Below, in pieces: positions 27,502 to 63,764 of a stretch of DNA of 64,000 nucleotides. A model generated the notes under the pieces. That model worked only from the letters and a program-made list of their open reading frames with translations, did no database searches and was not told the DNA's origin. The position numbers and the translations under genes are program-made. Source of the DNA: Narthecium ossifragum (taxonomy: Eukaryota; Streptophyta; Magnoliopsida; Dioscoreales; Nartheciaceae); the NCBI GenBank assembly GCA_963920575.1, contig OY986964.1, positions 16,061,987 through 16,125,986 on the forward strand, given 5' to 3'. Within the stretch, counting starts at the first letter, position 1. Every line of letters starts with the position of its first letter.

Positions 27502-27742
27502 TGTGAGGACATGTCCCTCTACTCCTGGACTGACCGTCCCGTGGCTCGTTGTGGACCGCAAGGGTAATTTGGTAAATTACATCTTGCCGGTTTGTTTCAC
27601 ACCCGCGGGTGCACACACTGACGTAGTTAGAGTTAGTGTTTATTTAGAATGGTTAGGTGGACCCGGGATCGGAAGATCTGAGCTTGGGCTTGTGTTTGAG
27701 CCCAAGTTTGACTTTCTAGCCCAAGCTCGACTTTCTGGGTGA

Positions 27743-34670: not shown

Positions 34671-36671
34671 TGTCGCGCCCTGACCCGCGAAAGCCCAACC
34701 GGGCCGGGCGACGCGAACCGGAACCTAACAAAACGCGGAAAAAGCTGGTGAGGGTTCCCTCTAACCTATTGGTCTCCCTAACAATTCACCAAAAGCACCC
34801 TCAATTAAAAGACATTAATTTAACAACATCGAACCACAGATTTCAAACCCAAAACGTGTTTAATATACATATCCTCGGAGAGGGGAAGATTCAAATACAA
34901 CATTACTCCCGTAGGAGACTACCTAACAAAAGGTATAAAAGCAGTAAAGATCGCCACCTCTCAAAGTCCACCAAGCGCCGCCACACCGCCGACCAACTGC
35001 CCGGTAGGGGCCATAGAAGAAGAACTGATGCCTGCACCTGCAAAACGCAGCCCGGGTAGGTGTGAGCACTAAGCTCAGTAGGGTTCTATACTACGACACA
35101 CAGAAAGAAGAGGGAAACACAAGAGTGTCGCCCTCAAGTAAGACCTGGGTGTATACAGGGGTCCCATAACCCCACTGCGTGTCCCTGAGGCCCAAGAGCA
35201 GCACTCAGTAGCAGGAACAACACTGACGACACACAACTGCAGGAAACGGCACTGTAGGGGGGAAAAAGGCACCGCTGAGTAGACAACTCCTCTACCCAAG
35301 GGTCAGCACAGTGGGACACCGGCTACACCTCAGCATCCGACTCAAGGCCAACACGACCTCTACAATCGTCAAGCAACAAGTGTACCAGTCATCTAAGCTT
35401 ATCATCGAATCGACTGGACACCACAATTCGAACCGGGTCCAAACTACCCAACCCCGGTCCTAGGGCTAAGTCCGAGCTTCCAGCCTCGGGACGACGACCC
35501 ACAGATCTCCCCACGCCCTAACCATGCAACTAATGCACAAATCAATAATGCATGCTATGAACATACACAAACAGGAGATAGTCATGCAACAGTATGATAA
35601 TGCATCATATAAGTCAACCTGATCACTACAGCGGTACTACCAACCGCTGCCAGACGATCCGCAGTGGGTACCGGCATTACGACGGTACCACGACCGTCAA
35701 CCGCGGACTCCTGCAACGGAAAGCAACCCCAAAAACGATGATGAACAGTAAACATATAATATTATAATCCGAAATATAATACTATAGTCAAAACACCAAA
35801 ACCTCTATTTAGAGGCTAATTGATCTCGTCGATCCGACGTCTAGACGACGTCAAAACCCGCCGCAAGCGGACTGTTCTTCAAGAACAACAGAAACCTGAA
35901 ATATCCGAGATTAATCATGCATAAATCCTACTAAAATCTCAACCAAAGTTCATGAAACTTATAACAGAAATTCTACTAAGCAAGAGGAAGCCAACAACAC
36001 CAAGATCAATAAGATCAAATGGCTAGAACTAGAGAAAACCCAAAACAACATCAGTAGGTAGAAACCTACCGGAAAGGCACTCCTCGGCTGATTCCCCGTG
36101 AACTAGTCACCATCAAGGTTTCAAACCACTTCAGGGATCTTCCTTACACCGCCACGGTTCCAAAAAGCCTTAGAACACCCAAAACGGTGGCCGGAGGAGG
36201 GAGAACGGTGAAGAAGAAGGAGCTGCCGGAAAACAGGGGAAGAAAACAGAGCCACGGGAGAAGGAAGAAGAAGGAAGAAGAAAGGAGAAGGAGGAGGAGA
36301 AGAGGAAGAAAAGGAGGGAAAAGGGGAAGGGAAAGTCGGGGGAAGGGGGAAAAAGGGGAAGGAGGGGAGGGAAAGTCCTCCCCTTCTGACAGGAGAGAGC
36401 GACGGCCAACGGTGGCCGTCCTCTCGAAGCAGAAAACCCAACGACGCGAGTCTGATCGCTCGCGGGCCGCCAGCAGCCCAAAAACGGCCTGCTGCGCGCC
36501 CGAGCTGGGATCTTCCGATCCCGGGTCCACCTAACCATTCTAATCAAGCACTAACACATACAAGGTCAGTGTGTGCACACGCGGGTGTGAAACAAACCAA
36601 CAAGGCACAATTTACCAAATTGCACTTGCGGTCTACAACGAGCCACAGGGGTAGAGGGACAGGTCCTCACA
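34671..36671 (-). mobile_element. Solo LTR, family II, TSD tgagg
   Basis: A 2001-bp unit, TGTCGCGCCCT...GGTCCTCACA, is flanked by tgagg at 34666-34670 and 36672-36676. It is shorter than the copies at 2588 and 28281, through a deletion around the middle (near 35840-35870, where the sequence jumps past a block present elsewhere). A decayed AT palindrome lies at about 35755-35792. Confidence 0.9.
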
Positions 36672-36676
36672 TGAGG

Positions 36677-38605
36677 CCTGCCAAGGACCCCATAAATCCC
36701 GTCAAGAACCCGAAGGGTACCTGTCCAAAGTACGTCCCTCCGACAGCCACTGTTCAAGGTTGGACCACCTCCGAAAATCCCTGACACAGGGTGGACATGA
36801 CGATACCAGTAGGACACCCCTCTCCAAGCGGGATCTCCACACTTGGCGAAACAACCGTGGTTATGACAACCAACTCTCAACACTCACAGCAACAGAGCCA
36901 ACACGACTTCTAAACTCCAAATCAAAAGCTAAGTCCTGCCAGGAAGCCCATAAATCCCATTGATACCCTTAGGGTTCCTGTCCAAAGTACCTCCCTCCGA
37001 CATCCACTGTTCAAGGACGGACCACCTCCGACAATCCCTGATATAGGGTGGACACGACGACACATGTCGGGGTAACGACATCCACCTCTTAGCAAATGAT
37101 ACTGGAGTACTAGGGACAAAGCCCAATCAACAATGCATGCTACAATATACACATACAAGAGAAAGGCATGCAACAGTTTGATACAGGTAGCATACAAGTC
37201 AACCGGATCGCTGCAGCGGTACTACCAACCGTTGCCAGCCAATTTGCAGCGGGTCCCGGCATTACGACGGTACCACGACCATCAACCGCGGACTCCTGCA
37301 ACGGGAAGCAACCTTGAAAACCGCCGATGAACAGTAAAATATAATATTATAATCCTAACATATAATATTATATTTAAAACACCAAAACATTCTCTACCTA
37401 GAGCTAATTGACGCCTTCGATCTGACGTCCAAACGACGTCGGATTCGAGATCCAACTTAGACTCCAGTATATCTATATGTCAGGATCAACATATCCATAC
37501 TCCAGAAACATCCAACGGCTAGATTAACGGGAAAACGCTAATCAAAACCGCTAATCAAACTAACTTGCCAATTACTTGTTGCAACGCAGCCCTCCAGTAA
37601 TAAATTCATAACAAATCGTAGCAAAATCAAAAAATTATGAAATCAGTTGGGTTTGAGGGTAGATTCAAAGATCTACAATGCGTATGTTCATCACAACCCA
37701 AGAACATGCACGTACTGGTCGGAAAACTCACCGCAAACCGGCTGTTCTTCAAGAACAGCAGAAACCAGAAAATCCGAGATTAAACATGCTTAAATCCTTC
37801 TAAAATCTCAACCAAAGCTTATGAAACTTATAACAAAAATTCTACTAGGCAAGATGCATCCAACAACAGAAAGAACATAAAGATCTAACGGCTAGATTAA
37901 GAGAAAACCATTAAACAACTCTCGTAGGTTGAAACCTACCAAAAATGCACTCCTCGGCTGATTCCCCGCAAACTGGTCACCAAAAAAGCTTCCAAACACA
38001 CTAGGGATCTTCCTCACGCCGCCACGGTTCCAAGGAGCCTTGCAATGCCCAAAACGGTGGCCGGAGGACTAAGAACGGAGAAGAAGAAGGCTCAGCCGGA
38101 AACAGGGGAAGCAGAACCGCGGAAGAAGAAGAAAGAAGAAGCAAGAAGAAGGGAAGGTGAAGAGGAAGAAGAAGAAGAAAAGAGCAGGGAAAACCCAGGG
38201 AAGGAGGGGAAAAGGGGGAGGAGAGGAGAGAAAGTCCTCTCTCCCTCTGACAAGGGAGAGCGACGGCCAACGATGGCCGTCCTCGTGAGAGTCACCGCCA
38301 GGACTTTCTGGCACAGAGGGATCGATTTCTTCCCAAGGAAGATCGATCCTTTTAACAAGAAAGATCGATCTTCTTAGCAAGAAAGATCGATCTTCTTGCC
38401 CAGAAAGACAAACTTAGGCTAAACCACAAGCCCAAGCTCGGATCTTCCGATCTCGGGTCCACCTAGCCATTCTATTCAAACACATACACCAAAACAAGGC
38501 CGGTGTGTGCACACGCGGGTGTGAAATAAACCTACAAGGCGCAGTTTACCAAATCTCCCTTATGGTCAACAACGGGCTACAGGAATAGAGGGACAGGTCC
38601 TCACT
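36677..38605 (-). mobile_element. Family II LTR, larger part (other part about 34512-34670)
   Basis: It is interrupted by the solo LTR at 34671-36671 and ends GGTCCTCACT at 38605 (last base changed from A). It contains a local duplication of about 260 bp with CCTGCCA(A)GGA and CTGTCCAAAGTAC cores (36677-36800 and 36939-37060), the GCTGCAGC segment (37205-37300) and a GATCGATC cluster (38320-38395). It is inserted in the integrase region of Tat-2. Confidence 0.75.
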
Positions 38606-47207: not shown

Positions 47208-48669
47208 TGATGAATAAATTTTATATCTCGCAAGTATACGAATCGGTGCAATCAGTATAGTAGCAAGACGAGTATCGTACCCACAGAGATTTGTAGAAAT
47301 TATTAGAGTGAAACGCTAAAGAACAGAAAAGAAAGAAAATAAGGAAGGGAAAATAAGAAATATGAAGTCTCAAAGATAGATAATCTAATAACGAAATAAG
47401 AAAATGATGAAAATATGATGGATGAATACTAAGGTTCCGATTTCACCATAACATCCTCATTCTATGCATTGAATCAATCAAGTTTCAGTTTAATTCCAAG
47501 GGCTCGTTCTTCCGGTATGATGATCCGTTCGGCCGCGGTCTTCACCAAGTACCCTCAATTAACCCTAGCTAATGAACCCATAACTAAGTGTTAATCAAGA
47601 ATCCATTAAGCTCTGAAGAACAATTATGAACCAAGAATACTCTTAGCTTGAACCCGGCCTCGACATAAACTCATTCATTCATAGATCCTGCAAGATTAGG
47701 GAATGAACCCTCGCCCAATCTCACATATAACAATCTATAATACTTCTATTGGCCAGATAAAGGTATTTAAGATCTCAGTTATAATAATGAATGAAACAAG
47801 GAAAATAAACTGATTAAATAATCATGATCCAATAACATAGAACGATTCAGTTAGGCTACATCGGTACCTTAGAAAAGAAACTAGCCACTCATGTTCATCA
47901 TGAGGGCAGCAAAACTAATGGAGAAATAAAGAAGAAATAAGAAAAGAAAACCAAGCCTGGAACCCTTATCTTCGCCTCCAAACGCTGCCAAAAAGTCCTC
48001 CAAAAGTCCCGCTTTGATAACCCTAAGTATTGTATTTATAGGCCTAAACTCGGGTGAGATTCGGCTCATTAAACGCTCCTTGCTGACGTGGCGGTCGACC
48101 GTGAGATCTCACGGTCGACCGGCAACTGTTCAAAATATTTCGGAAGAGCGACGGTCGATCCTCGCATCGACCCTGAGAAGTATTTTCTTTAACAGAGGCT
48201 GACGGTCGATGCGACGGATGATGCCACGGTCGACCGTGGGAAGTTTTGCATGTGACGGTCGATGCAACGGTCGTTCGGGGGAATTTCTGAGCGCGACGGT
48301 CGACCGTCACATCCTCACGGTCGACCGTCACTATTCATTCAGCTTGCGCACTTGTACGAAAAGTGTTGTATCTTCCTCTCTGAAACTCCAAATCACGAAC
48401 CGTAAAATTCTCTCGAAACTAGACTTCAAGATCTTTCCAACCATATATGGCACATCATCTGGTTCTTCATGAGCAGGTACTGATTAATCTTTAAATTTGA
48501 TCCATGCACTCTTTTCAGCTTCTTTTCTCCTTTTTCCTGCATTTTCCAAACAACTATGTGAAGCAACATATAGATATAAAAATAGGAATAAAGATGTTGA
48601 TTAAAGATAATAATCTAGCAATTGAGATGGTTATAAGGCTATTTAGAGTGCACTTTCATGCACTCATCA
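47208..48669 (-). mobile_element. Element A 3' LTR
   Basis: 1462 bp, TGATGA...TCATCA. TATA box on the minus strand at 48033-48041. GGTCGACC-type palindrome cluster at 48091-48331, starting about 50 bp upstream of the TATA box. Confidence 0.95.
48091..48331. promoter_or_regulatory. Cluster of ACGGTCGACCGT palindromes in the U3 part of element A LTR
   Basis: At least four full GGTCGACC cores and several half-variants (GGTCGATC, GGTCGATGC) lie in 240 bp just upstream of TATA. The same array is in the 5' LTR at 56136-56375. It is a plausible set of transcription factor or methylation-sensitive sites; the binder is unknown. Confidence 0.7.
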
Positions 48670-48682
48670 CACCCCCCAACCA
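48670..48682 (-). other. Element A polypurine tract
   Basis: The minus strand reads GGTTGGGGGGTG directly before the 3' LTR; it primes plus-strand DNA synthesis. Element B has the same tract at 58277-58289. Confidence 0.85.
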
Positions 48683-49853
48683 GCTTATTGCTAGTCTCTA
48701 GCAATTTTAAGCGCATAAAATATATTAAGCACACCACGGTTCAAGGATGTAGACAAGCATGATAAAAGTTCTGCCTTATCAAGTCAATAATGTTGTACAC
48801 CGTACAGAGCACGAAAACTTATAATACTCATACACATACCACCAACATATGAAATCAACTTCTACACTTCAAACATGCTAACACCATCCAGAAGAACACA
48901 TGTGACGTGATAAATAAATGTTACGTACAGAAGCAACTTCTACCCACCATTAGTCCAAACACGCTACTATCTTCATGACCAATCATCCAACCCTCGCACT
49001 TTAAGTACAACATGCTCTTTTTTTTTTTTTTTTTTTTTTTTCAACTATCAAACATTTTGCCGTTTTACACGAGCACTCTCCGCTTCATGAGGCGCAGAGA
49101 CCCGGTTACTTAACAAAACACTGAGTAGTTTTTTTTTTTTAGTGGTTCTACCTTTTTACGCGAGCTCCCTGCTTCCTGAGGCAAGAACACCCGGTTACTA
49201 AGTAGATCACCTAACAGTCGTTTAGGCACAGCTTATTAAAGCTCCAGAACATTTTCTGTATTTTTTTTTTTTCTGCATGCAATACTCAACACTAGCTAAT
49301 GCTGAAATCATGGTCTAGATTGACAATAGCATGCTCATTCCTCTGGTGAGTATAATCGCCACTGCACATAAAGTGTTCGTGTGTGAATCACATAATATTC
49401 TACCTTCAGGTTATTATACATGCAATCAATGTATCGGCCAATCCATATGAAAGCAGCATGTAAAATAAGCATAAACATTTCAGCTCATGTACAATTTAAC
49501 ACTATTAAACCAACAAGGTAGCATGAATAAAGTCATGAATGTCTACACCCCCCAACCTGAATTCAACATTGTCCTCAATGTGTGCATTTATCCAATAAAA
49601 ATATGTAGGAGGTGGCAATCCAAAAAATTTCAAGAAAAGGAAGAGACAAGATACTGTAAATAAGAACGAGGCTACCTTATAGAATAGCGAACATCTCCTC
49701 AAGGATCCTCCGGGTGGCTGAAAACCTAAAAGAAAAACAAAAGAGAAAATATAAAATTGAAAACTAAAACTTAAAGTTAAAAACTGGTTACCTTGGTGGG
49801 TTGCCTCCCACCCAGCGCTTTATTTAACGTCTAGGCAAGACGTAATACCAAGT
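48683..49853 (-). mobile_element. Element A 3' non-coding region
   Basis: 1.17 kb between pol and the polypurine tract with T-runs (49018-49041, 49129-49140, 49260-49272) and no env-like ORF. A conserved clause at 49545-49585 reads on the minus strand as CATTGAGGACAATGTTG followed by GGTTGGGGGG, an internal polypurine-like motif also present in B at 59289-59325. Confidence 0.75.
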
Positions 49854-52800
49854 TTAAGGTTCACCAAAATCAACTGCATCCACCACATCTGAATGTCCTT
49901 CCAAATACAATTTCAAACGGTGCCCATTGACTTTGAATTTGCTCCCATTCCTTTCATTCTCAATTTCAACAGCACCGTGAGGCGATACTTGTGTCACTTT
50001 GAACGGGCCCGTCCATCTGGATCTTAATTTACCTGGAAAGAATTTCATTCGTGAGTTATAAACTAAAACTTTCATACCTGGTGTAAACTCCTTCCGTTGT
50101 ATTACTTTATCATGATAGAGCTTGGTTCTTTCCTTGTAAATCTTAGCATTCTCGTACGCTTCATTCCGCAGCTCATCCAATTCATTCAATTGCATCTTTC
50201 TCATATCCCCCGCTTCTCTCATGTCAAAATTCAGCTGCTTTATTGCCCAATACGCCCTATACTCCAATTCCACCGGTAGATGACATGCTTTTCCAAAGAC
50301 AATGCGATAAGGGCTCATACCAATTGGAGTTTTATATGCAGTGCGATACGCCCAAAGAACATCATTCAATTTCACTGCCCAATCCTTCCTTGTAGTGCCA
50401 ACAACTCGTTCCAGGATCGTCTTTATTTGCCTATTGCTCACCTCCACTTGGCCCGACGTTTGAGGGTGGTAAGGAGTTGCGACCCGATGAGTGATGTTGT
50501 ATTTCTTCAACAATGCATCAAACGCTCTATTGCAAAAGTGTGATCCCCCATCACTTATAATCGCCCGAGGTGTACCAAACCTTGTAAAAATCATATCTTT
50601 CAAGAATCCCACCACGGTCTTGCTGTCATTGTTCCTGGTTGCAATTGTTTCAATCCACTTAGACACATAATCTACAGCAACAAGAATATACGTGTACCCG
50701 TATGATGGAGGAAACGGTCCCATAAAGTCTATGCCCCAAACATCGAACAATTCCACCACCAGATTATTTGTAAGAGGCATCTCATTCCTTTTGCTTATGT
50801 TCCCTGACCGTTGACATCTGTCACACTTAGCAACAAAATTAAATGCATCTTTGAATAGTGTAGGCCAAAAGAAACCAGATTGAAGAACTTTAAAAGCAGT
50901 TTTCTTATCTCCAAAGTGTCCTCCACACGTTAATTCATGACTAAATTTCAATATATGGTCATGCTCATATTCTGAAACACAACGCCTTATTATTTGATCA
51001 GGACAATGTTTAAATAAATAAGGGTCATCCCAAAAGTAATATCTGACTGTGGACAAAAATCTTTTCTTTTCTTGTGAACTTAGATCAGCACGCAGAACAT
51101 TACTAGCTAGATAGTTAACAATATCCGCATACCAGGGCTCTTTACCATTCACAGAAAATAGTTGTTCATCGGGAAAGCATTCTTGGATGGGTTGTACATC
51201 CTTAGGGCCGCCCATGTGTTCCAGTCGTGACAAGTGATCTGCCACTACATTATCGCTCCCTTTCTTGTCCCTTATTTCCAAATCGAACTCTTGCAGCAGT
51301 AGGATCCACCTGATTAACCTTGGCTTTGTATCCTTTTTGGTTAGTAGATATTTCAATGCTGCATGATCTGAATAAATAATAACTTTAGATCCAATCAAAT
51401 AAGAGCGAAATTTCTCCAATGCAAAAACAACAACAAGTAATTCTTTTTCAGTAGTTGAGTAATTGATTTGAGCAACATTGAGTGTACGACTTGCATAATA
51501 AATAGCATGAGAGACCTTATTTACCCTTTGTCCTAGAACAGCCCCTATAGCATAATCAGAAGCATCACACATTATTTCAAAGGGCAACGACCAATCAGGA
51601 GACATAATAATTGGTGCAGTAATCAATTTCTCTTTCAAAGTATTGAAAGCATCAAGACAAGCTTTACAAAACTTAAACTCACTATCTTTGGCCAATAAAT
51701 CACACAATGGTTGTGCAATTTTAGAAAAATCTCTAATGAATCTGCGATAAAATCCTGCATGGCCTAAAAAACTCCGCACACCTTTCACAGAAGTAGGGGG
51801 CGGTAATTTCTCAATCAAATCTATTTTTGCTTTATCTACGCCAATACCTTTACTAGAAATAGCATGTCCCAACACAATACCTTGCCTTACCATGAAGTGA
51901 CTCTTCTCCCAGCTCAATGTCAAATTTGTCTCTTCACATCTTTTAAGCACCAAGGTTAGGTGTGCCAGGCAATTATCAAAAGAATTCCCAAATACAGAAA
52001 AATCATCCATGAATACCTCGACAAACCTTTCTATCATGTCGGAGAAAATCGATATCATGCATCTTTGAAAGGTGGCAGGTGCATTGCACAATCCGAATGG
52101 CATCCTTCTGTATGCGAATGTTCCAAACGGACAGGTGAAAGTTGTCTTCTCTTGGTCCTCTGGGGCGATAGCAATTTGATTATAACCTGAAAATCCATCA
52201 AGAAAACAATAAAATGAGTGACCAGCTAAGCGTTCAAGCATTTGATCAATAAAAGGTAAAGGAAAGTGGTCCTTTTTAGTAGCTACATTAAGCTTGCGAT
52301 AATCGATGCAGACACGCCATCCAGTAGTCATCCTCGTGGGTATGAGCTCATTGTTCTCATTCTTCACAACTGTTATCCCTGATTTCTTAGGCACCACGTG
52401 AACTGGACTTACCAATTTGCTGTCAGAAATAGGATAGATCACGCCAACATCGAGCAACTTAAGGATCTCTTCCCGAACAACGTCTTTCATGTTTGGGTTG
52501 AGGCGACGCTGGGCATCCCGTATAGGTTTGGCATCCTCTTCCAAAATAATGCGATGCATGCACAGAGTAGGACTTACTCCTTTAATATCTGCAATTGTCC
52601 AACCTATTGCAGTTTTATGCTCCCTAAGAACTCTCAATAATTTTTCCTCTTCCAATGGAGTAATGTCAGAAGCAATAATCACAGGAAGGGTTTCATTCTC
52701 ACCAAGATATGCATATTTCAGATTACTAGGAAGAGGTTTTAACTCAAGCTTTGGTGGGGAAACTATTGATGAAACCATTTTAGAATAGGATTCATTTAGC

Positions 52801-55211
52801 ATGTCTAACCGAGATTCATCAGGGAAACATGGCTGCAATGCCTCAAGGGCTGCTATAACCTCCTTTGCTCCCTCGTAATTCTTCAACTCCTCCTTTTCCA
52901 TCGTCAATGCCGCTTCTAGAGTAGTCTTCACTTGCTCCTGCATGAAACTAGAAAACACCAATGAATCTAAAACATCTATTGAGAAACAATCAAAAGAGTT
53001 TGAAGGATAGGACATAGATTCAAAAACTTTAAATTCAATAGTTTCACCTAAAACTGTCATGCTGAGCTTACCATCCTGCACATTTATCATAGTCTTGGCT
53101 GTGGCCATAAATGGACGTCCCAACAAAATTGGTAAATTCCTATCATGTAAGGGCGCATTTTCCATATCCAATATCACAAAATCAGCAGGGATAATCAATT
53201 TATCAACTTGTACTAAAATGTCTTCTACAATGCCTAATGGATATTTAATGGAACGATCTGCAAGTTGTAGAGACATTGTAGTAGGTTTTAATTCACCCAC
53301 ACCTAACTGAAGAAAAACAGAGTAAGGCATCAAATTAACACTGGCTCCTAAATCAAGCATTGCCTCTCCTATCTTTGTATCACCAACAGTAATAGTAATG
53401 TTAAAACTCCCTGGATCCTTAAGCTTGGGTGGAAGCTTCCTTTGTAGAACCGCGCTTACCGTCTCTGAAACCATCACTTTTTCATGAGGTTCATACTTAC
53501 GCTTTGAAGTACTTAGTTCCTTGAAGAACTTTGGAAATGCTGGCATGTTCCTGATCACCTCAAGCAATGGTAAGTTCACATTAACCTTAGATAAAATATC
53601 ATAAATTTCAGAATATGACTTATCCATTTTGGCTTTCTTTAGACGGCCTGGAAACGGAACCGACGACACATATGGTGGAGGAGAGTTGTGATAAATCTCT
53701 GGAACTGAATTTGCTCTCTTTCCATGCTCAGAAGCAGATGTGGCCGGTGGTGGCCCTTTCGAGCATTCCTCCGTTTCAACTTCCTCACTTGCATCATCAT
53801 TACACTCATCAACAACTTTAGCATTAATCTTATTATCAATAATTTTACCTGAACGAAGAACTGTAACTGCTTTCGCTTGCTCAGGTTGGCTTGGGAATTT
53901 GCCTGGGACATGGGCTCGTACCGCATCAGCAAGTTGTCCCACTTGAACTTCTAACTTCCCAACGGATGCTGCAACATTCTTTAGTACCGCGTCATGTTGA
54001 GCAATGGCTGAATCTTGTTTTTCCATCTTTGAATCTATTTTCTGCATAAAAGCTAACATAGTCGCTTTCAAAGACGACTTAACAGGTGGGTTAGACTGAT
54101 TAGCAGTAGGCATACTAGCATTAGCAGTATTTTTCCATGAAAAATTCGGATGCTCCCTCCAACCAGGATTGTAAGTATTTGCATAAGGGTCAAATCTAGG
54201 TCTTGGGTTATACGCATTCATCAAATTAGCTTGCTCTTGCACATATTCAGGAAATTCACTACCAGAAGGACATGAATCAAACCTATGACCAACAATATTG
54301 CAAATTGAACAAACCTCAACCGGTTTTGCTTGTGTAGACATCATCGCGTCTATCTTCTTGTTAAGAGTTGCAATCTGCCTTGCCATGTCATCATTCTGGT
54401 TCAGCTCATAGATGCCTCTCGCCTTATTCCTCGTGTCCCTCTGCTGCGAGTTTGATCCTAGCATCTCATAGATTTCATATGCCTCCGGTGGTGTCCTTTT
54501 GAACATCGCTCCACCTGCAGCATTATCTGCCATAGTCTGACAAGAAAGATTTAGTCTATCATAAAAATATTGCATCTGATTTTCTAAAGAATAATTATGA
54601 TGTGGACATTGCATCAAAAGCATTTTAAATCTATCCCATGCTTCATGGAATGGTTCTCCATCAGCTTGCTGAAAATTTGGAATTTGTCTTCTCAAGTTAG
54701 TAGTCATGGCATGAGAATAAAATTTGCTAACAAACTTATTATAAATTGCATCCCAAGTCGTGAGTGATCCAGGAGGCAACGACATCAGCCATCTCTTCGC
54801 TTTATCCTTCAGGGTGTAAGGAAAACATCGCATCCTCAAGTGATCTTCAGTAATGCCACCTAAAGGAAAAGTCTGAATAGTAGCATAATAATCTTTCACA
54901 AACGTTAGAGCATCTTCAGAAGGTAAACCATGAAATTCAGGAAGCATAGAAAAATGTAGATTTTTAAGTTCATAATTTCTAGCCTCTGCAGGTAACGCAA
55001 TGCACGAAGGTGAGGTAGAAATAGTAGGCCTCGCGTACTCCTCCAAAGGACGTAAATTATTATTGAGCTCCATCTCCTCTTGTTCCTCCTCTTGAACTCC
55101 TAGATCTGATGTGGACAGGCTGTCTTTGTTAGATTTCTTCTTCCAACCAATTTGATCTACTTTATCGTTCAAGGACAACAACTTTTCTTTCCGTGATCGG
55201 CGACCTTGCAT
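49854..55211 (-). CDS. Athila gag-pol polyprotein of element A (1785 aa)
   Basis: One uninterrupted frame. Gag core (residues about 85-260, with [20 protein letters not shown] and [19 protein letters not shown]), zinc knuckle [14 protein letters not shown] (about 300-313), protease with the Athila-type [14 protein letters not shown] (about 618), RT with [20 protein letters not shown] and the catalytic FMDDF (about 1066), RNase H with [14 protein letters not shown] (about 1214) and SDHAALKYL (about 1280), and integrase with an HHCC finger (about 1427-1466) and catalytic D (GIDFMG, about 1492), D (ISDGG, about 1552) and E (QVEVSNR, about 1588). The C-terminus has [13 protein letters not shown]. 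All key residues are present. The ATG lies only 25 bp from the PBS. It would make particles, cDNA and integrate it; RT and integrase could also serve element B. Confidence 0.95.
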
Positions 55212-55236
55212 TCACTACAAATAAACTCTAATCAAA

Positions 55237-55254
55237 TCCCCGGCAACGGCGCCA
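55237..55254 (-). other. Element A primer binding site, tRNA-Asp type
   Basis: The plus strand is tccccggcaacggcgcca; the minus strand TGGCGCCGTTGCCGGGGA is the known Athila primer site matching tRNA-Asp. Six bases separate it from the LTR. Confidence 0.9.
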
Positions 55255-55260
55255 AAAACT

Positions 55261-56713
55261 TGATGAATAAATTTTATATCTCGCAAGTATACGAATCGGT
55301 GCAATCAGTATAGTAGCAAGACGAGTATCGTACCCACAGAGATTTGTAGAAATTATTAGAGTGAAACGCTAAAGAACAGAAAATAAAGAAGGGAAAATAA
55401 GAAATATGAAGTCTCAAAGATAGATAATCTAATAACGAAATAAGAAAATGATGAAAATATGATGGATGAATACTAAGGTTCCGATTTCACCATAACATCC
55501 TCATTCTATGCATTGAATCAATCAAGTTTCAGTTTAATTCCAAGGGCTCGTTCTTCCGGTATGATGATCCGTTCGGCCGCGGTCTTCACCAAGTACCCTC
55601 AATTAACCCTAGCTAATGAACCCATAACTAAGTGTTAATCAAGAATCCATTAAGCTCTGAAGAACAATTATGAACCAAGAATACTCTTAGCTTGAACCCG
55701 GCCTAGACATAAACTCATTCATTCATAGATCCTGCAAGATTAGGGAATGAACCCTCGCCCAATCTCACATACAACAATCTATAATACTTCTATTGGCCAG
55801 ATAAAGGTATTTAAGATCTCAGTTATAATAATGAATGAAACAAGGAAAATAAACTGATTAAATAATCATGATCCAATAACATAGAACGATTCAGTTAGGC
55901 TACATCGGTAACTTAGAAAAGAAACTAGCCACTCATGTTCATCATGAGGGCAGCAAAACTAATGGAGAAATAAAGAAGAAATAAGAAAAGAAAACCAAGC
56001 CTGGAACCCTTATCTTCGCCTCCAAACGCTGCCAAAAAGTCCTCCAAAAGTCCCGCTTTGATAACCCTAAGTATTGTATTTATAGGCCAAAACTCGGGTG
56101 AGATCCGGCTCATTAAACGCTCCTTGCTGACGTGGCGGTCGACCGTGAGATCTCACGGTCGACCGGCAACTGTTCAAAATATTTCGGAAGAGCGACGGTC
56201 GATCCTCGCATCGACCCTGAGAAGTATTTTCTTTAACAGAGGCTGACGGTCGATGCGACGGATGATGCCACGGTCGACCGTGGGAAGTTTTGCATGTGAC
56301 GGTCGATGCAACGGTCGTTCGGGGGAATTTCTGAGCGCGACGGTCGACCGTCACATCCTCACGGTCGACCGTCACTATTCATTCAGCTTGCGCACTTGTA
56401 CGAAAAGTGTTGTATCTTCCTCTCTGAAACTCCAAATCACAAACCGTAAAATTCTCCCAAAACTAGACTTCAAGATCTTTCCAACCATATATGGCATATC
56501 ATCTGGTTCTTCATGAACAGGTACAGATTAATCTTTAAAGTTGATCCATGCACTCTTTTCAGCTTCTTTTCTCCTTTTTCCTGCATTTTCCAAACAACTA
56601 TGTGAAGCAACATATAGATATAAAAATAGGAATAAAGATGTTGATTAAAGAGAATAATCTAGCAATTGAGATGGTTATAAGGCTATTTAGAGTGCCCTTT
56701 TATGCACTCATCA
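55261..56713 (-). mobile_element. Element A 5' LTR
   Basis: 1453 bp, TGATGA...TCATCA; TATA box on the minus strand at 56077-56085, GGTCGACC palindrome cluster at 56136-56375. It is followed by TSD agcgg at 56714-56718. Confidence 0.95.
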
Positions 56714-56718
56714 AGCGG

Positions 56719-56766
56719 CTTTGGGAAATGGTTTAGCATCAACTCCCATGTTCTTGGATGGAAAAC
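56719..56766 (-). pseudogene. 48-bp piece of Tat-2 gag between elements A and B
   Basis: This is the Tat-2 coding sequence left between the two insertions. The minus strand reads in frame with both the 47202 side and the 63765 side (residues such as FPSKNMGVDAKPFPK). Confidence 0.75.
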
Positions 56767-57641
56767 TGGTTACGCCCAAAACGTGCACACAACAACGGCG
56801 GTCGCAGCAGTGCAGTAAAAACGGTCGGTCCACAGGGAGGCAGAAAAGCAAGATGAAAACACAAGTATACAAGGTAGCTAACTAGGGGTTATCAATATTA
56901 GAATAACAGAACAAAGCATGTAATAAGATATGGTTGGTTTGTTGATCAAATTCAAAGGGTAAAGAAGGGTGGAAAGGATCGAAGCAAGGCCTTGGGCATC
57001 ACCTTCTCTAACCTGGGTATTTTCCTTACCCAGTATCCTTGTATAACACAATCAAGGGATTCACATCCCAATCCCTTGATCGGAAGGTATAGAAATATAA
57101 ATCATGCAGTCACAAGGTAATGATCTAAATGAATCTATCCTCAACAGTTAAGAATGAAACCTTGCTTACAAGGGTCTAAGACGACGATGTATCAACTGTC
57201 ACTGCGGACACATCGCAGCAAAGGGAATCCAAGAAGCAAGTGATCTATGCATACATCCATTCTAAATCGACGAAGTATCAGCTGTCACGGCGGACAAAAC
57301 GCAGTAAAGAAGTGGACATGGCATATAAATCATTATCTAAACAAGGATTAAATAACCATCCCCACATAGGAAGAGCATGACTGAACCTATATGTGGACTA
57401 ATCATGTAAAACATGCATCGAAAGCTTATAAGAGTAGAGAGGAATGAAACAAAATCGATCATCTATTCAATAAAAGGAATCTGATACAAAGATAAGGGAT
57501 GAGAAGAAAAACCAGGAATAGAGGAGGATCAGCCTGCAGCCCAGCAGAGGACTACTCACATTTGCCCATCTTCTCTCTCTCTCTCCTATACATGTGGTAT
57601 ACCTCAATGAATTGATACTATAAACCTTACCCCTAGGGGTG

Positions 57642-57650
57642 TATTTATAG
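57642..57650 (-). promoter_or_regulatory. TATA box of element B 3' LTR
   Basis: The minus strand reads CTATAAATA; the same box is at 63126-63134 in the 5' LTR, where it would drive the genomic transcript. Confidence 0.75.
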
Positions 57651-57801
57651 GCAAAGTTTTCTTATCCACTCAGGGGTAAAAGGGTAATTTGAGTGGATGG
57701 TCAAAGGATCTTATCCAGTGACTAGGATTCTTATCCACTCAGGGGTAAATGGGTAATTTTGAGTGGTCAAATGATCTTATCAACTGGAAAGCTCTAGCAA
57801 G

Positions 57802-57879
57802 TTCTAGAAACTTCAAGAAACTTCTAGAAACTTCTAGAGACTTCAAGAAACTTCTAGAAACTTCTAGAAACTTCTAGAA
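57802..57879. promoter_or_regulatory. 78-bp heat-shock-element-like array, 16 alternating TTC/GAA pentamers (3' LTR copy)
   Basis: The unit acTTCtaGAA repeats eight times without spacing change; only one half-site is altered (GAG for GAA) and the two-base spacers vary slightly (ta/aa). Contiguous inverted nGAAn pentamers are the binding pattern of heat shock factors; three are enough for a trimer. It lies 152 bp upstream of the LTR TATA box in element orientation. Confidence 0.85.
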
Positions 57880-58289
57880 TTTCAAGGGTCTCCATTCGAT
57901 GTGTCAGGTGCCGACATGCCTATTCGGTGGATGGGCCGTCCAACCGGGTGATCGTGCCGAAATGCATCTCCTGTTGATGGTCCATCTTGTCTGGTGATCG
58001 TCTAGTGCCAACATGCTTCTCTTGTCGATGCGCCGTCCAATTGACCGGTAGTCTGACCAGAGCGGCAGTTTCAGCTATTTCTTTGACTCTTTATTCTGGA
58101 AATCCACAAAGACTCCAAAAACATGTGAAGCACACCATTTCAACCCCATTTCAACTGGTAAGGGTATAAAACACCGATTATAACAAATCATATATATTAA
58201 ACAAGATTTAACAATATTTAATGCACAAATCGGGTATTGAAAACAAGTAATTGGATGCAATATTTGCATCCAATCACACCCCCCAACTT

Positions 58290-59522: not shown

Positions 59523-62192
59523 TCAAGGTGCATATACGGGGTTGGCAAGAGGAACAAAGTCCTCCACCAAGTCGAACCGTTCTGCAAAGGGTTTCAGCCT
59601 TTGACCATTTACTTTAAAAACACGACCATCCTTTGGGTCTTCGACTATAACGGCCCCATTTTCAAAGAGTCGCTTATCAAAATAAGAATTAGTAGAATTT
59701 AGAGCGTAAGAAAACTCCTCTTCCATGAGGGAGTCAATTCTGAATGTGTGCTCGCATCCGTCATTGTCATCTAGGTTCGTGCCAACATTGAATATGTTGA
59801 CTTCGAGCGTCATTGCTCCGAATGTTAACTTCATCAGACCGTTCCTGCAGTTAATTATGGCATTTCCAGTGGCAAGGAATGGTCTACCTAAAATAATAGG
59901 AATTTTGGAAGTCGAAGTCACTAAAGCATGAGTGTCAAGAACTAGAAAGTCGACAGGATAACAGAATGTATCAATTTGGATGAGCACATCCTCTATTACG
60001 CCCCTTGGCACTTTTGTGGATCTGTCTGCCAATTGTAGTACAACCGAAGTAGGCTTGATTTGACCCAAGCCAAGCTGTACATATACTGAATATGGTATTA
60101 AATTCACGCTAGCACCTAAATCTAGTAAGGCATGCCCGACCTCACGTCCACCTATCATGCAAGATATAGTAGGGCATCCTGGGTCTTTATACTTAGGGGG
60201 AATATTTTGCGTAAGCAAGGCGCTAACTTGCTCAGTCAAGAATGCAGTTTTCTTAACATGGTGCCTTTTCTTAACTCTAAACAGGTCTATAAAAATTTTC
60301 TTAAATGTAGGCAATTGTTGAATAGTTTCTACGAGAGGGAGATTTACCTTGACCTGTTTGAGAGCCTGTATTATCTCACCAGTATGGTCGATGATTGGTG
60401 ATGTTGACTTTAATGCCTCAGGAAAAGGCACTTTTGGTTTGAATGCTGCTTCTGGGCGGTCGACCACCGCTTCAGCCGGTTCTTTCTTTTCCTCTTCATC
60501 TTCCTCACTTATTGACGTTGAAGGTACTTGCATGTTTTCCAATACCTTTCCGCTTCTAGTAGTGATGGCATTGACTTCCTTTATGTCTTTCTTACCTAAA
60601 TTGGAAGTTTGCCCTTGGATTGGTTGAAACGGTTGGGCTGGAAATTTCCCTCGTTCGATCGATAAGTCGGTCAACGCGCTGAAGACTTTCGATAGTTGAC
60701 CCTTCACCTCCTTTATTTCCTCGAATACCTGCACAAATGTGGACTCAAACTTTTGATTAGTCTTTGCTTGAGTTTCTATAAATAGTTGCAAAGAATCATG
60801 TAATGAAGGTTTAGGAGGAGTATTATAAGAGGGGTTAGAAAATTGTCGAGGAGGTTGTTGTTGTTGCGCCTCGTTGAGCTGTTGTGGTGCATTGGGTTTC
60901 CAAGCGAAGTTGGGATGGTCTCGCCATCCGGGGTTGTATGTGTTGGAGTAGGGGTTGTATGATTTGTTGAAGGTGCCAAGTGCTCCACACTGCTCTTCTT
61001 GCGACCCTCGTTGTTCCCCATAACTCTGACATTCACCCATATAGTGGTCCAGCGCTCCGCATACAGCGCATGATCTTTGGGGCTCGACGCTTGTGGTGGC
61101 TTGTGTCACCATCACATCCCTCGTTTTCAATAATTGCATCATACTATCTAATCTCGCCCTTATATCATCATCTTCCTTTAAATGGTAAACTCCCCTGGTC
61201 CTTGTGGTGCTATCGGTAGGGGATGGCCCTGCCCAGTTTATAGCCTTTTCCACAAGTCCATCTAGGAATTCTAGAGCCTCGTTGGGATCCTTCTGCATGA
61301 AATTTCCTCCACACATAGACTCGATGAATTGACGATCAGTAGGATTAATGCCGTTATAAAAATGGCCAAGTAAATGCCAATTTTCAAGTCCATGATGAGG
61401 GCAAGCAGTTAGTATTTCTTTAAAACGTTCCCATGCCTGACACAGGGTCTCATGACCCTTTTGTGCAAATGTGACGATTTCTCGCCTCAATGCATTGGTC
61501 TTGTGGATGGGGAAATATTTGTTTAAAAAGATTTGGGTCATTTGATCCCATGACCTAATCGTTCCTGGCCGTAAAGAATAAAGCCAACTCTTAGCTCTGT
61601 CTTTAAGAGAAAAAGGGAAAAAACGTAGTCTAACAATATCTAGGGCAGCAGGTGCATGATGAAAAGTGGCCACAACCTCTTCAAATTCCCTAATATGCAC
61701 ATATGGTAGTTCATTTTCTAAGCCATGGAAAGTAAGGAGCAGTTGGATCATACCAGGCTTAAAATCTTGAGGTGGTGCATTAGGAGGGATCACAATACAC
61801 GAAGGTGTGGGCGATCGGGTAGGATAGAGGTAGTCGTTAAGACTCCTCGTGGGCTGGTCCGCATGCTGACTCATAGCTAATGATTTATGTGATGAAACAA
61901 AATCAGTGTCAGATGAAGTAAAGCGAGGACTAGAGTCAAGAGGTATATTAACGAGATCGTCAAAGATAAAAGCTTGGCCAGGAACAAAGTCTGGCCGAGT
62001 CACAAGTCTACCAGTCTCGTCTCTATACCAAGGCATGCAACAGTAAAAATCTCTTTTTGGTCTAAAATGTAATTTAAGAACAGAAGAAAACAGGGGAAAA
62101 TATGCAGAAATCAAATTAAACACAAAAACAAATAACAAGAGCAAAAAGTAAGGAATAGAGTTATCTAATCTTGATGTTATTATAGAAAGCAA
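59523..62192 (-). CDS. Gag-protease protein of element B, fused to the last residues of pol
   Basis: The frame is 889 codons. The likely true start is the ATG at 62034-62036 (MPWYRDETG, 837 aa), because the first 52 residues are hydrophobic and lie in the leader. Gag core with TFHGLENELPYVHIREFEEV and DRAKSWLYSLRPGTIRSWD (about residues 160-230 of the long form), zinc knuckle CAVCGALDHYMGEC (about 373-386, CX2CX4HX4C), a Gln/Pro-rich linker, and protease with Athila-type [14 protein letters not shown] (about 690). After the protease the frame passes directly into NGAVIVEDP and KVNGQRLKPF, equivalent to the C-terminal tail of Athila integrase. RT, RNase H and the integrase core are missing, yet the frame is kept. 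It could package RNA and self-process. Confidence 0.92.
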   Translation of the reverse strand: MLSIITSRLDNSIPYFLLLLFVFVFNLISAYFPLFSSVLKLHFRPKRDFYCCMPWYRDETGRLVTRPDFVPGQAFIFDDLVNIPLDSSPRFTSSDTDFVSSHKSLAMSQHADQPTRSLNDYLYPTRSPTPSCIVIPPNAPPQDFKPGMIQLLLTFHGLENELPYVHIREFEEVVATFHHAPAALDIVRLRFFPFSLKDRAKSWLYSLRPGTIRSWDQMTQIFLNKYFPIHKTNALRREIVTFAQKGHETLCQAWERFKEILTACPHHGLENWHLLGHFYNGINPTDRQFIESMCGGNFMQKDPNEALEFLDGLVEKAINWAGPSPTDSTTRTRGVYHLKEDDDIRARLDSMMQLLKTRDVMVTQATTSVEPQRSCAVCGALDHYMGECQSYGEQRGSQEEQCGALGTFNKSYNPYSNTYNPGWRDHPNFAWKPNAPQQLNEAQQQQPPRQFSNPSYNTPPKPSLHDSLQLFIETQAKTNQKFESTFVQVFEEIKEVKGQLSKVFSALTDLSIERGKFPAQPFQPIQGQTSNLGKKDIKEVNAITTRSGKVLENMQVPSTSISEEDEEEKKEPAEAVVDRPEAAFKPKVPFPEALKSTSPIIDHTGEIIQALKQVKVNLPLVETIQQLPTFKKIFIDLFRVKKRHHVKKTAFLTEQVSALLTQNIPPKYKDPGCPTISCMIGGREVGHALLDLGASVNLIPYSVYVQLGLGQIKPTSVVLQLADRSTKVPRGVIEDVLIQIDTFCYPVDFLVLDTHALVTSTSKIPIILGRPFLATGNAIINCRNGLMKLTFGAMTLEVNIFNVGTNLDDNDGCEHTFRIDSLMEEEFSYALNSTNSYFDKRLFENGAVIVEDPKDGRVFKVNGQRLKPFAERFDLVEDFVPLANPVYAP

Positions 62193-62227
62193 ACCTTGCT
62201 TTCTTATGCTTTTTCTTGGCTAATACC

Positions 62228-62245
62228 TCCCCGGCAACGGCGCCA
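62228..62245 (-). other. Element B primer binding site, tRNA-Asp type
   Basis: The same 18 bases as in element A (tccccggcaacggcgcca on the plus strand), five bases inside the LTR at 62251. The shared primer site supports use of the Athila machinery. Confidence 0.9.
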
Positions 62246-62250
62246 AAATT

Positions 62251-63759
62251 TGGTTACGCCCAAAACGTGCACACAACAACGGCGGTCGCAGCAGTGCAGT
62301 AAAAACGGTCGGTCCACAGGGAGGCAGAAAAGCAAGATGAAAACACAAGTATACAAGGTAGCTAACTAGGGGTTATCAATATTAGAATAACAGAACAAAG
62401 CATGTAATAAGATATGGTTGGTTTGTTGATCAAATTCAAAGGGTAAAGAAGGGTGGAAAGGATCGAAGCAAGGCCTTGGGCATCACCTTCTCTAACCTGG
62501 GTATTTTCCTTACCCAGTATCCTTGTATAACACAATCAAGGGATTCACATCCCAATCCCTTGATCGGAAGGTATAGAAATATAAATCATGCAGTCACAAG
62601 GTAATGATCTAAATGAATCTATCCTCAACAGTTAAGAATGAAACCTTGCTTACAAGGGTCTAAGACGACGATGTATCAACTGTCACTGCGGACACATCGC
62701 AGCAAAGGGAATCCAAGAAGCAAGTGATCTATGCATACATCCATTCTAAATCGACGAAGTATCAGCTGTCACGGCGGACAAAACGCAGTAAAGAAGTGGA
62801 CATGGCATATAAATCATTATCTAAACATGGATTAAATAACCATCCCCACATAGGAAGAGCATGACTGAACCTATATGTGGACTAATCAGGTAAAACATGC
62901 ATCGAAAGCTTATAAGAGTAGAGAGGAATGAAACAAAATCGATCATCTATTCAATAAAAGGAATCTGATACAAAGATAAGGGATGAGAAGAAAAACCAGG
63001 AATAGAGGAGGATCAGCCTGCAGCCCAGCAGAGGACTACTCACATTTGCCCATCTTCTCTCTCTCTCTCCTATACATGTGGTATACCTCAATGAATTGAT
63101 ACCATAAACCTTACACCTAGGGGTGTATTTATAGGCAAAGTTTTCTTATCCACTCAGGGGTAAAAGGGTAATTTGAGTGGATGGTCAAAGGATCTTATCC
63201 AGTGACTAGGATTCTTATCCACTCAGGGGTAAATGGGTAATTTTGAGTGGTCAAATGATCTTATCAACTGGAAAGCTCTAGCAAGTTCTAGAAACTTCAA
63301 GAAACTTCTAGAAACTTCTAGAGACTTCAAGAAACTTCTAGAAACTTCTAGAAACTTCTAGAATTTCAAGGGTCTCCATTCGATGTGTCAGGTGCCGACA
63401 TGCCTATTCGGTGGATGGGCCGTCCAACCGGGTGATCGTGCCGAAATGCATATCCTGTTGATGGTCCATCTTGTCTGGTGATCGTCTAGTGCCAACATGC
63501 TTCTCTTGTCGATGTGCCGTCCAATTGACCGGTAGTCTGACCAGAGCGGCAGTTTCAGCTATTTCTTTGACTCTTTATTCTGGAAATCCACAAAGACTCC
63601 AAAAACATGTGAAGCACACCATTTCAACCCCATTTCAACTGGTAAGGGTATAAACACGGATTATAACAAATCATATATATTAAACAAGATTTAACAATAT
63701 TTAATGCACAAATCGGGTATTGAAAACAAGTAATTGGATGCAATATTTGCATCCAATCA
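62251..63759 (-). mobile_element. Element B 5' LTR
   Basis: 1509 bp, almost identical to the 3' LTR. TATA box 63126-63134, heat-shock-element-like array 63286-63363. This copy would drive transcription of the gag-protease RNA. Confidence 0.95.
63286..63363. promoter_or_regulatory. Heat-shock-element-like array, 5' LTR copy
   Basis: Same 16 pentamers as 57802-57879, with no differences seen. It lies 152 bp upstream of the TATA box at 63126-63134, in the promoter that would act. Confidence 0.85.
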
Positions 63760-63764
63760 AAAAC

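What the first reader, a model, noticed from the sequence alone, without database searches (positions are those of the whole stretch)
57802..57879. Long perfect heat-shock-element array in both LTRs of an Athila derivative
Seen: 16 contiguous alternating TTC/GAA pentamers (period 10) in each LTR of element B, 152 bp upstream of the TATA box, with no difference seen between the two LTRs. Known: heat shock factor trimers bind inverted nGAAn pentamers, and Copia elements of the ONSEN type are heat-activated through LTR heat-shock elements. Inferred: B is a heat-inducible Ty3/Athila element. I know of no Athila-lineage element described with an array this long; that novelty claim is untested.
Basis: partly seen in the sequence, partly recalled or inferred. 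Interest (0 to 1): 0.88.

Follow-up and report, generated by a model that had tools for sequence, protein, structure and literature searches.

The report
Heat-shock array in plant retrotransposon family
A plant jumping gene carries, in its promoter, a long row of binding sites of the kind that heat-shock proteins use to switch genes on; related copies in the same genome carry rows of different length, so the element is probably switched on by heat, although no expression was measured.

Summary
The array is real and sits where stated. Each LTR of element B (minus strand) holds 16 in-phase TTC/GAA pentamers, 15 perfect (one reads GAG), identical in both LTRs, 152 bp upstream of TATAAATA. It belongs to a whole LTR family, not one copy. 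The host assembly (379 Mb) has 110 perfect 6-pentamer matches against 1 for the reversed pattern; I traced 104 of the 110 to 36 of the 40 LTRs of this family that I examined. All 20 further LTRs taken from an LTR similarity search carry the array, 19 of 20 with at least 4 adjacent perfect pentamers. Arrays span 3 to 19 ten-base units. B's group has other linker letters and mostly longer arrays, though B's is its shortest. B is a young (LTR divergence 0.47%) gag-protease derivative without RT, RNase H and integrase core; four elements share its deletion junction, and a full-length-type relative exists. Best reading: an HSF-bound enhancer makes this Athila-type family heat-inducible, as in ONSEN but with many more pentamers. 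Not shown: heat expression, HSF binding, or selection on the pentamers (tests not significant; cores no more conserved than flanks). I judge it a new variant of a known kind.

The parts
57802..57879 (-). HSE array in the 3' LTR of element B: 16 in-phase pentamers, 15 perfect (GAG at 57837-57839)
63286..63363 (-). identical HSE array in the 5' LTR of element B
57787..57801 (-). three further in-phase pentamer positions (GAA, CTC, GCA; two of them damaged) extending the 3'-LTR array towards the TATA box; the same at 63271-63285 in the 5' LTR
57642..57649 (-). TATAAATA box of the 3' LTR, 152 bases downstream of the array in transcription sense
63126..63133 (-). TATAAATA box of the 5' LTR (the one expected to drive the element)
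56767..58276 (-). 3' LTR of element B (1510 bp, TG..CA)
62251..63759 (-). 5' LTR of element B (1509 bp); 7 substitutions and 1 indel from the other LTR, K2P 0.0047
56762..56766 (.). target-site duplication AAAAC (partner 63760-63764)
63760..63764 (.). target-site duplication AAAAC (partner 56762-56766)
62228..62245 (-). primer binding site: 18 bases equal on the + strand to a tRNA-Asp-type 3' end plus CCA
58277..58286 (-). purine-rich tract next to the 3' LTR (read by eye)
59523..62219 (-). 898-aa open frame (stop to stop): gag, protease, then directly the integrase C-terminal tail; RT, RNase H and integrase core absent
59674..59676 (-). deletion junction (2868 bp missing relative to the full-length-type relative on C1, a multiple of 3), shared with three other copies
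   Evidence: window position worked out by hand from the alignment

Best explanation
The array is a tandemly expanded heat shock element in the U3 enhancer of an Athila-type Ty3 LTR family. Under heat, trimers of host heat shock factors bind the alternating GAA/TTC pentamers, several trimers per array, and drive RNA polymerase II from the TATA box 152 bp downstream. The RNA supplies Gag and protease; because RT, RNase H and integrase core are missing in B, reverse transcription and integration must come in trans from relatives that share the LTR and primer site. The array grows and shrinks mostly in 10-base steps, which keeps the HSE phase, so promoter strength can change from copy to copy. 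Shown: anatomy, family-wide presence, length variation, shared deletion junction, presence of host HSF genes. Inferred: HSF binding, heat induction, help in trans.
For: Array far above shuffles. Genome-wide 110 perfect 6-pentamer matches against 1 for the reversed pattern; 104 of the 110 lie in 36 of the 40 LTRs of this family examined. 17 of 17 pattern-found loci fetched lie in this LTR family. 20 of 20 fetched LTRs found by LTR similarity carry the array and 19 of 20 have 4 or more adjacent perfect pentamers, the '4P' class that a Brassicaceae study associates with up to thousand-fold heat induction (PMC5059998, passages read). TATA at one fixed distance (140 bp from the array-segment end) in 14 of 19 LTRs checked, 120 bp in 2 more, not found in 3. 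35 of 39 array segments have length 10k+1. 15 HSF DNA-binding-domain loci in the host. HSFA2 binding to an LTR fragment with a far shorter HRE of the same motif is shown for ONSEN (PMC3907296, passages).
Against: No expression, chromatin or binding data. Core letters are not more conserved than the flank: deviation per site 5.1% in cores against 4.9% in the flank (16 LTRs of dialect 2), 6.3% against 1.35% (4 LTRs of dialect 1). The shared-versus-private test of core versus linker changes goes the expected way but is not significant (P 0.18; 0.08 for variants in 5 or more loci; P 0.22 in the first, smaller set). Core-breaking units have spread in B's group. 6 of the 9 loci whose 10-kb flanks were fetched show no second LTR, so many copies look like solo LTRs. 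The full-length-type copy examined has one stop in each of the RT and RNase H pieces. Two heat-responsive bamboo Ty3 elements are reported to bind TCP, DOF and GATA factors, not HSFs (PMC8656106, passages).
Confidence: 0.7

Rival explanations
1. A neutral minisatellite: a 10-bp unit that happened to contain TTCnnGAA was amplified by slippage and is copied along with the LTR, without function in heat.
For: Arrays change length mostly in 10-bp steps, also between the two LTRs of one insertion (111 vs 71 bp in C2:15.63; 151 vs 161 in C12 and 89 vs 51 in C1:15.36). Cores are no more conserved than flanks. Core-breaking units (TCTCTAGAAG) have spread in B's group (10 loci).
Against: A random 10-bp unit would hold the six fixed letters in some rotation only about 0.24% of the time (own estimate, 10 x 4^-6). 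The array lies upstream of a TATA box at a fixed distance in most LTRs checked and keeps 4 or more adjacent perfect pentamers in 19 of 20 LTRs found by LTR similarity. Linker letters differ throughout between two groups of LTRs while the HSE phase is kept.
Confidence: 0.2
2. The array binds HSFs and makes the LTR heat-responsive, but no longer serves transposition; it acts as dispersed heat enhancers near other sequences.
For: 6 of 9 loci with fetched flanks show no second LTR of the family. HSE-bearing Helitrons lie near heat-responsive genes in Caenorhabditis (PMC6927752, passages).
Against: B is young (K2P 0.0047) with an open 898-aa frame, so movement in the recent past is likely. The listed copies lie mostly in the middle of the long contigs, where plant genes are usually few (positions; gene density not measured).
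Confidence: 0.07
3. The 10-bp period (one helical turn) is a DNA bending or nucleosome-positioning signal and the HSE match is incidental.
For: Strict 10-bp period.
Against: What both linker dialects share is TTC..GAA, not the A-run: the GAAAC tract of dialect 1 (+ strand) is broken in part of the dialect-2 units.
Confidence: 0.03

Closest known systems
ONSEN/ATCOPIA78 and other Brassicaceae heat-responsive Copia elements (COPIA37, TERESTRA, ROMANIAT5)
   Same: HSE of adjacent nGAAn pentamers in the LTR; ONSEN's HRE is thought to have arisen by duplication of a proto-HRE (PMC5059998, PMC3907296, passages read).
   Different: They are Ty1/Copia with HREs of four adjacent nGAAn (ONSEN) or a cluster of six (A. 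lyrata TERESTRA, the largest in the passages I read). Here the element is Athila-type Ty3, with arrays of 3 to 19 ten-base units (up to 28 in-phase perfect pentamers), and LTR partners differ in array length.
PHRE1 and PHRE2 of moso bamboo
   Same: Ty3/gypsy elements studied under heat stress, with LTR binding of transcription factors tested (PMC8656106, passages).
   Different: Factors reported are TCP, DOF and GATA; 'HSE' and 'HSF' do not occur in that text, so not an HSE array.
Thlaspi arvense Alesia.FAM.7
   Same: Putative HRE with a four-nGAAn cluster in most LTR copies (PMC10881000, passages read).
   Different: Ty1 lineage, short cluster. In the passages shown Athila is the most abundant lineage there, with no HRE mentioned for it.
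Heat-induced Ty3/gypsy elements (Cryptomeria japonica; Athila in heat-stressed Arabidopsis)
   Same: Ty3 elements rising under heat (table entries in reviews PMC9780303, and PMC5056178; primary papers not read).
   Different: The review entries that I read give no HSE array for them.
Caenorhabditis Helitrons with tandem HSEs
   Same: Overlapping tandem HSEs in a mobile element, bound by HSF-1 under heat (PMC6927752, passages read).
   Different: DNA transposon in nematodes, not an LTR promoter.
TR-GAG non-autonomous LTR elements
   Same: LTR pair, a gag frame, no RT; transposition of one shown in Arabidopsis ddm1 (PMC8704663, passages read).
   Different: B also keeps protease and an in-frame integrase tail; the Arabidopsis case is Copia.

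Membership tests
Athila lineage (Ty3, OTA clade) | PBS complementary to a tRNA used by non-chromoviruses (tRNA-Asp among them, PMC6317226, passages) | tested here: met
   18 bases at 62228-62245 equal a tRNA-Asp-type 3' end plus CCA (tRNA sequence recalled; of two genomic loci read, one on C2 shows the anticodon arm by eye); ARAGORN called no tRNA in the two loci. The full-length-type relative has the same 18 bases. This PBS type is shared with other lineages.
Athila lineage (Ty3, OTA clade) | RT/RNase H/INT phylogeny | not tested
   B has no RT; the full-length-type relative's RT piece is 71% identical to that of element A; no reference Athila sequences were at hand
Athila lineage (Ty3, OTA clade) | no archaeal-type second RNase H (which marks Tat, PMC6317226) and no chromodomain | tested here: inconclusive
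   Element A's 1785-aa frame shows neither in Pfam; not tested on B's own full-length-type relative
Heat-responsive LTR retrotransposons (ONSEN-like function) | at least 3-4 adjacent nGAAn pentamers in the LTR | tested here: met
Heat-responsive LTR retrotransposons (ONSEN-like function) | transcription induced by heat through HSF | not testable with these tools
   needs RNA-seq or reporter; 15 HSF domain loci exist in the genome
ONSEN family proper | Ty1/Copia type | tested here: not met
   Retrotrans_gag, aspartic protease; the same-family relative has the order gag, protease, RT, RNase H, integrase of Ty3
TR-GAG | LTR pair with a frame that encodes GAG alone | tested here: not met
   B encodes GAG, protease and an integrase tail

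The most novel reading that the evidence does not exclude
An Athila-type family has turned its LTR enhancer into an expandable heat rheostat: slippage adds or removes whole 10-bp HSE units, one group of copies has replaced the linkers of its whole array while keeping the HSE phase, and a gag-protease derivative spreads by riding on heat-activated relatives that share the LTR. Nearly all long HSE rows of this genome (104 of 110 perfect 6-pentamer matches) then belong to one mobile family.
Probability: 0.4. Interest if true: 0.75.

Novelty: new variant of a known kind. Interest (0 to 1): 0.6.

Why it matters
It extends HSE-driven LTR promoters, best known from Ty1/Copia elements, to an Athila-type Ty3 family, a lineage that often fills pericentromeric plant DNA. 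It also offers a natural dose series (3 to 19 ten-base units in nearly the same LTR) for asking whether more HSF sites give more heat response, and whether heat drives bursts of such elements. Finding that 104 of 110 long HSE rows in a genome lie in one mobile family warns that HSF maps in plants may be dominated by such LTRs.

Tried and rejected
Searching IMG/VR for relatives of the gag-protease frame: 116 stretches matched a pattern, none was confirmed. An IMG/VR scan for 8-pentamer arrays gave one unrelated GC-rich contig. A homology search with element A's RT region: none of the 120 listed records (of 7957) names the lineage, so the Athila label rests on PBS, domains and recalled lineage features. 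A selection test on array letters was run twice and was not significant. Array length versus age: only five dated elements, so no relation is claimed. Naming the host species: dropped, because the marker locus fetched reads partly as N.

Full report
Observation. The window holds element B on the minus strand: 5' LTR 62251-63759, 3' LTR 56767-58276, TG..CA ends, TSD AAAAC on both sides. The PBS at 62228-62245 equals, on the + strand, a tRNA-Asp-type 3' end with CCA (tRNA recalled; of the two such genomic loci read, one shows the anticodon arm by eye, the other only the 3' end, and ARAGORN called no tRNA in either). Each LTR has 16 alternating TTC/GAA pentamers in 5-base phase; 15 are perfect and one is GAG. 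The 4-pentamer pattern with at most 1 mismatch occurs 14 times in the window, all in the two arrays; 100 shuffles give a mean of 0.43.

Element B. The 898-aa frame 59523-62219 carries Retrotrans_gag and an aspartic protease and then runs straight into an integrase C-terminal tail. In a Fagus relative (P0029) the same two parts lie about 616 residues apart. Best named relatives (120 of 630 listed) are plant gag proteins at 58% identity or less. Against a same-family, full-length-type copy on C1:17072036-17081831 (gag, protease, RT, RNase H, integrase; same 18-base PBS) B lacks 2868 bp, a multiple of 3. Its junction is also found in C12:13896475-13903459, C2:15634935-15644249 and C1:15361213-15370490 (in the last an insert lies about 55 bp from the junction; the C2 copy has an insert inside the protease). 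So four elements with LTR pairs share one deletion and the derivative has multiplied, presumably helped in trans. LTR-pair K2P: B 0.0047, C2:15.63 0.016, C1:17.07 0.025, C1:15.36 0.034, C12 0.032, or 0.026 without the array region. TSDs are exact 5-mers for B, C1:17.07, C2:15.63 and C1:15.36 and 4 of 5 letters for C12. At a recalled rate of 1.3e-8 per site per year B would be about 0.2 million years old. The full-length-type copy has one stop in the RT piece and one in the RNase H piece; no intact partner was looked for beyond this. Exact copies of the 18-base PBS were not found in the fetched stretches of the C2:15.63 and C1:15.36 copies.

Family. The host assembly G000 has 379.4 Mb in 150 contigs. 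Perfect 6-pentamer HSE rows occur 110 times against 1 for the reversed pattern (the listing was cut within C2). I fetched all 17 further loci that were listed; 17 of 17 match B's LTR. An LTR similarity search gave 46 match rows, with 312 first-look candidates of which 40 were scored. I fetched array regions of 20 LTRs from it that I did not yet hold; three loci seen only as LTR pieces (C6:11.88, C9:9.40, C12:17.81) were not fetched. All 20 carry the array; the longest runs of perfect pentamers are 3 to 15, and 19 of 20 have 4 or more. The query contained the array (91 of 1510 bases) and the best-scoring LTRs are listed, so this set is nearly, not wholly, free of array bias. Over 39 readable array segments (a 40th LTR, L019, is split by an insertion), 37 have runs of 4 or more and 35 of 39 have length 10k+1; lengths run from 30 to 191 bp. 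35 of the 39 segments together hold 103 of the 110 genome-wide 6-pentamer matches, 104 with L019. The other 6 were not traced.

Two linker dialects. In the sense strand B's group reads TTTCTAGAAG-type units and the rest reads TTTCTAGAAC/CTTCTGGAAC-type units. An LTR tree without the array (19 LTRs, seven of them of the first type) puts the first type on one side of a branch with 100/100 support; that it is derived rests on midpoint rooting only, and the four first-type LTRs fetched later are not in the tree. First-type arrays are longer: 10 loci, median 161 bp, against 24 loci, median 76 bp, Mann-Whitney P 1e-4; in the LTR-found set alone 4 against 16, P 0.02. The ranges overlap, B's own array (91 bp) is the shortest of its group, and related copies are not independent. 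The array seems to have been re-amplified from a changed unit in that group, keeping the HSE phase. LTR partners of one insertion differ in 4 of 5 dated elements: 111 vs 71 bp in C2:15.63 and 130 vs 131 in C1:17.07, 151 vs 161 in C12 and 89 vs 51 in C1:15.36; B's two are identical.

Tests that do not support selection. Counting unit variants as private or shared and core or linker gives 19 core/15 linker shared and 23/10 private over all arrays (P 0.18); variants in 5 or more loci against private ones 6/8 and 23/10 (P 0.08); the first, smaller set gave P 0.22. Core deviation per site is 5.1% against 4.9% in the 130-bp downstream flank for dialect 2 (16 LTRs), and 6.3% against 1.35% for dialect 1 (4 LTRs). 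The three most variable unit positions over the pooled 20 LTRs are all linkers, but within dialect 1 a core position ties for second; weak evidence.

Mechanism. TATAAATA lies 140 bp past the array-segment end in 14 of 19 LTRs checked, 120 bp in 2 more, and was not found in 3. The genome has 15 HSF DNA-binding-domain loci. In ONSEN an HRE with consensus nTTCnnGAAn is bound by HSFA2 (PMC3907296, passages), and four or more adjacent nGAAn ('4P') go with up to thousand-fold heat induction (PMC5059998, passages). B's array has runs of 7 and 8, so by that rule it is a 4P-class element. Heat induction remains an inference.

Print. Searches with heat shock element, Athila, gypsy, Ty3, HSF and LTR terms listed no Athila-type element with an HSE array, judged by titles, abstract starts and the passages opened; they cover open-access papers only, and some listed papers were not opened. 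Reviews list heat-induced Ty3 elements in Cryptomeria (PMC9780303) and Athila rising under prolonged heat in Arabidopsis (PMC5056178). Moso bamboo PHRE1 and PHRE2 are Ty3 elements studied under heat whose LTRs interact with TCP, DOF and GATA factors (PMC8656106, passages). Tandem HSEs in a mobile element are known from Caenorhabditis Helitrons (PMC6927752, passages).

Verdict. A real, family-wide, length-variable HSE array in an Athila-type LTR; function very plausible, untested.

Noticed in passing
47208-56713: Element A: neighbouring minus-strand LTR element with an intact 1785-aa gag-pol frame (49854-55211), LTRs 98.3% identical, the same tRNA-Asp-type PBS letters (55237-55254), and no 4-pentamer HSE match.
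   Followed up: partly
L039 (C2:15.638-15.641 Mb) and L024 (C1:15.364-15.367 Mb): Two deletion-type copies of the family each carry an insert of about 2.4 kb, in different places (inside protease; about 55 bp before the shared junction). Nature of the inserts not looked at.
   Followed up: no
LTR matches: Family copies lie mostly in the middle of the long contigs (with exceptions on C6, C7, C9 and C12), as one would expect of pericentromeric Athila-type elements.
   Followed up: no
3289-5153, 28281-30667, 34671-38117: Families of repeated 150-300 bp blocks (D1-D7, D10), partly inverted at 27538-27725, suggest several diverged copies of one larger repeat.
   Followed up: no
L001:4009-4046: The only IMG/VR contig with a perfect 8-pentamer TTC/GAA row, in GC-rich, apparently bacterial or phage DNA; probably unrelated to heat shock factors.
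   Followed up: partly
array units in L009-L012 and L007, L014, L015, L022: Recurrent G-to-A change of the GAA pentamer (to AAA) in several arrays, compatible with deamination of methylated cytosines on the other strand.
   Followed up: no
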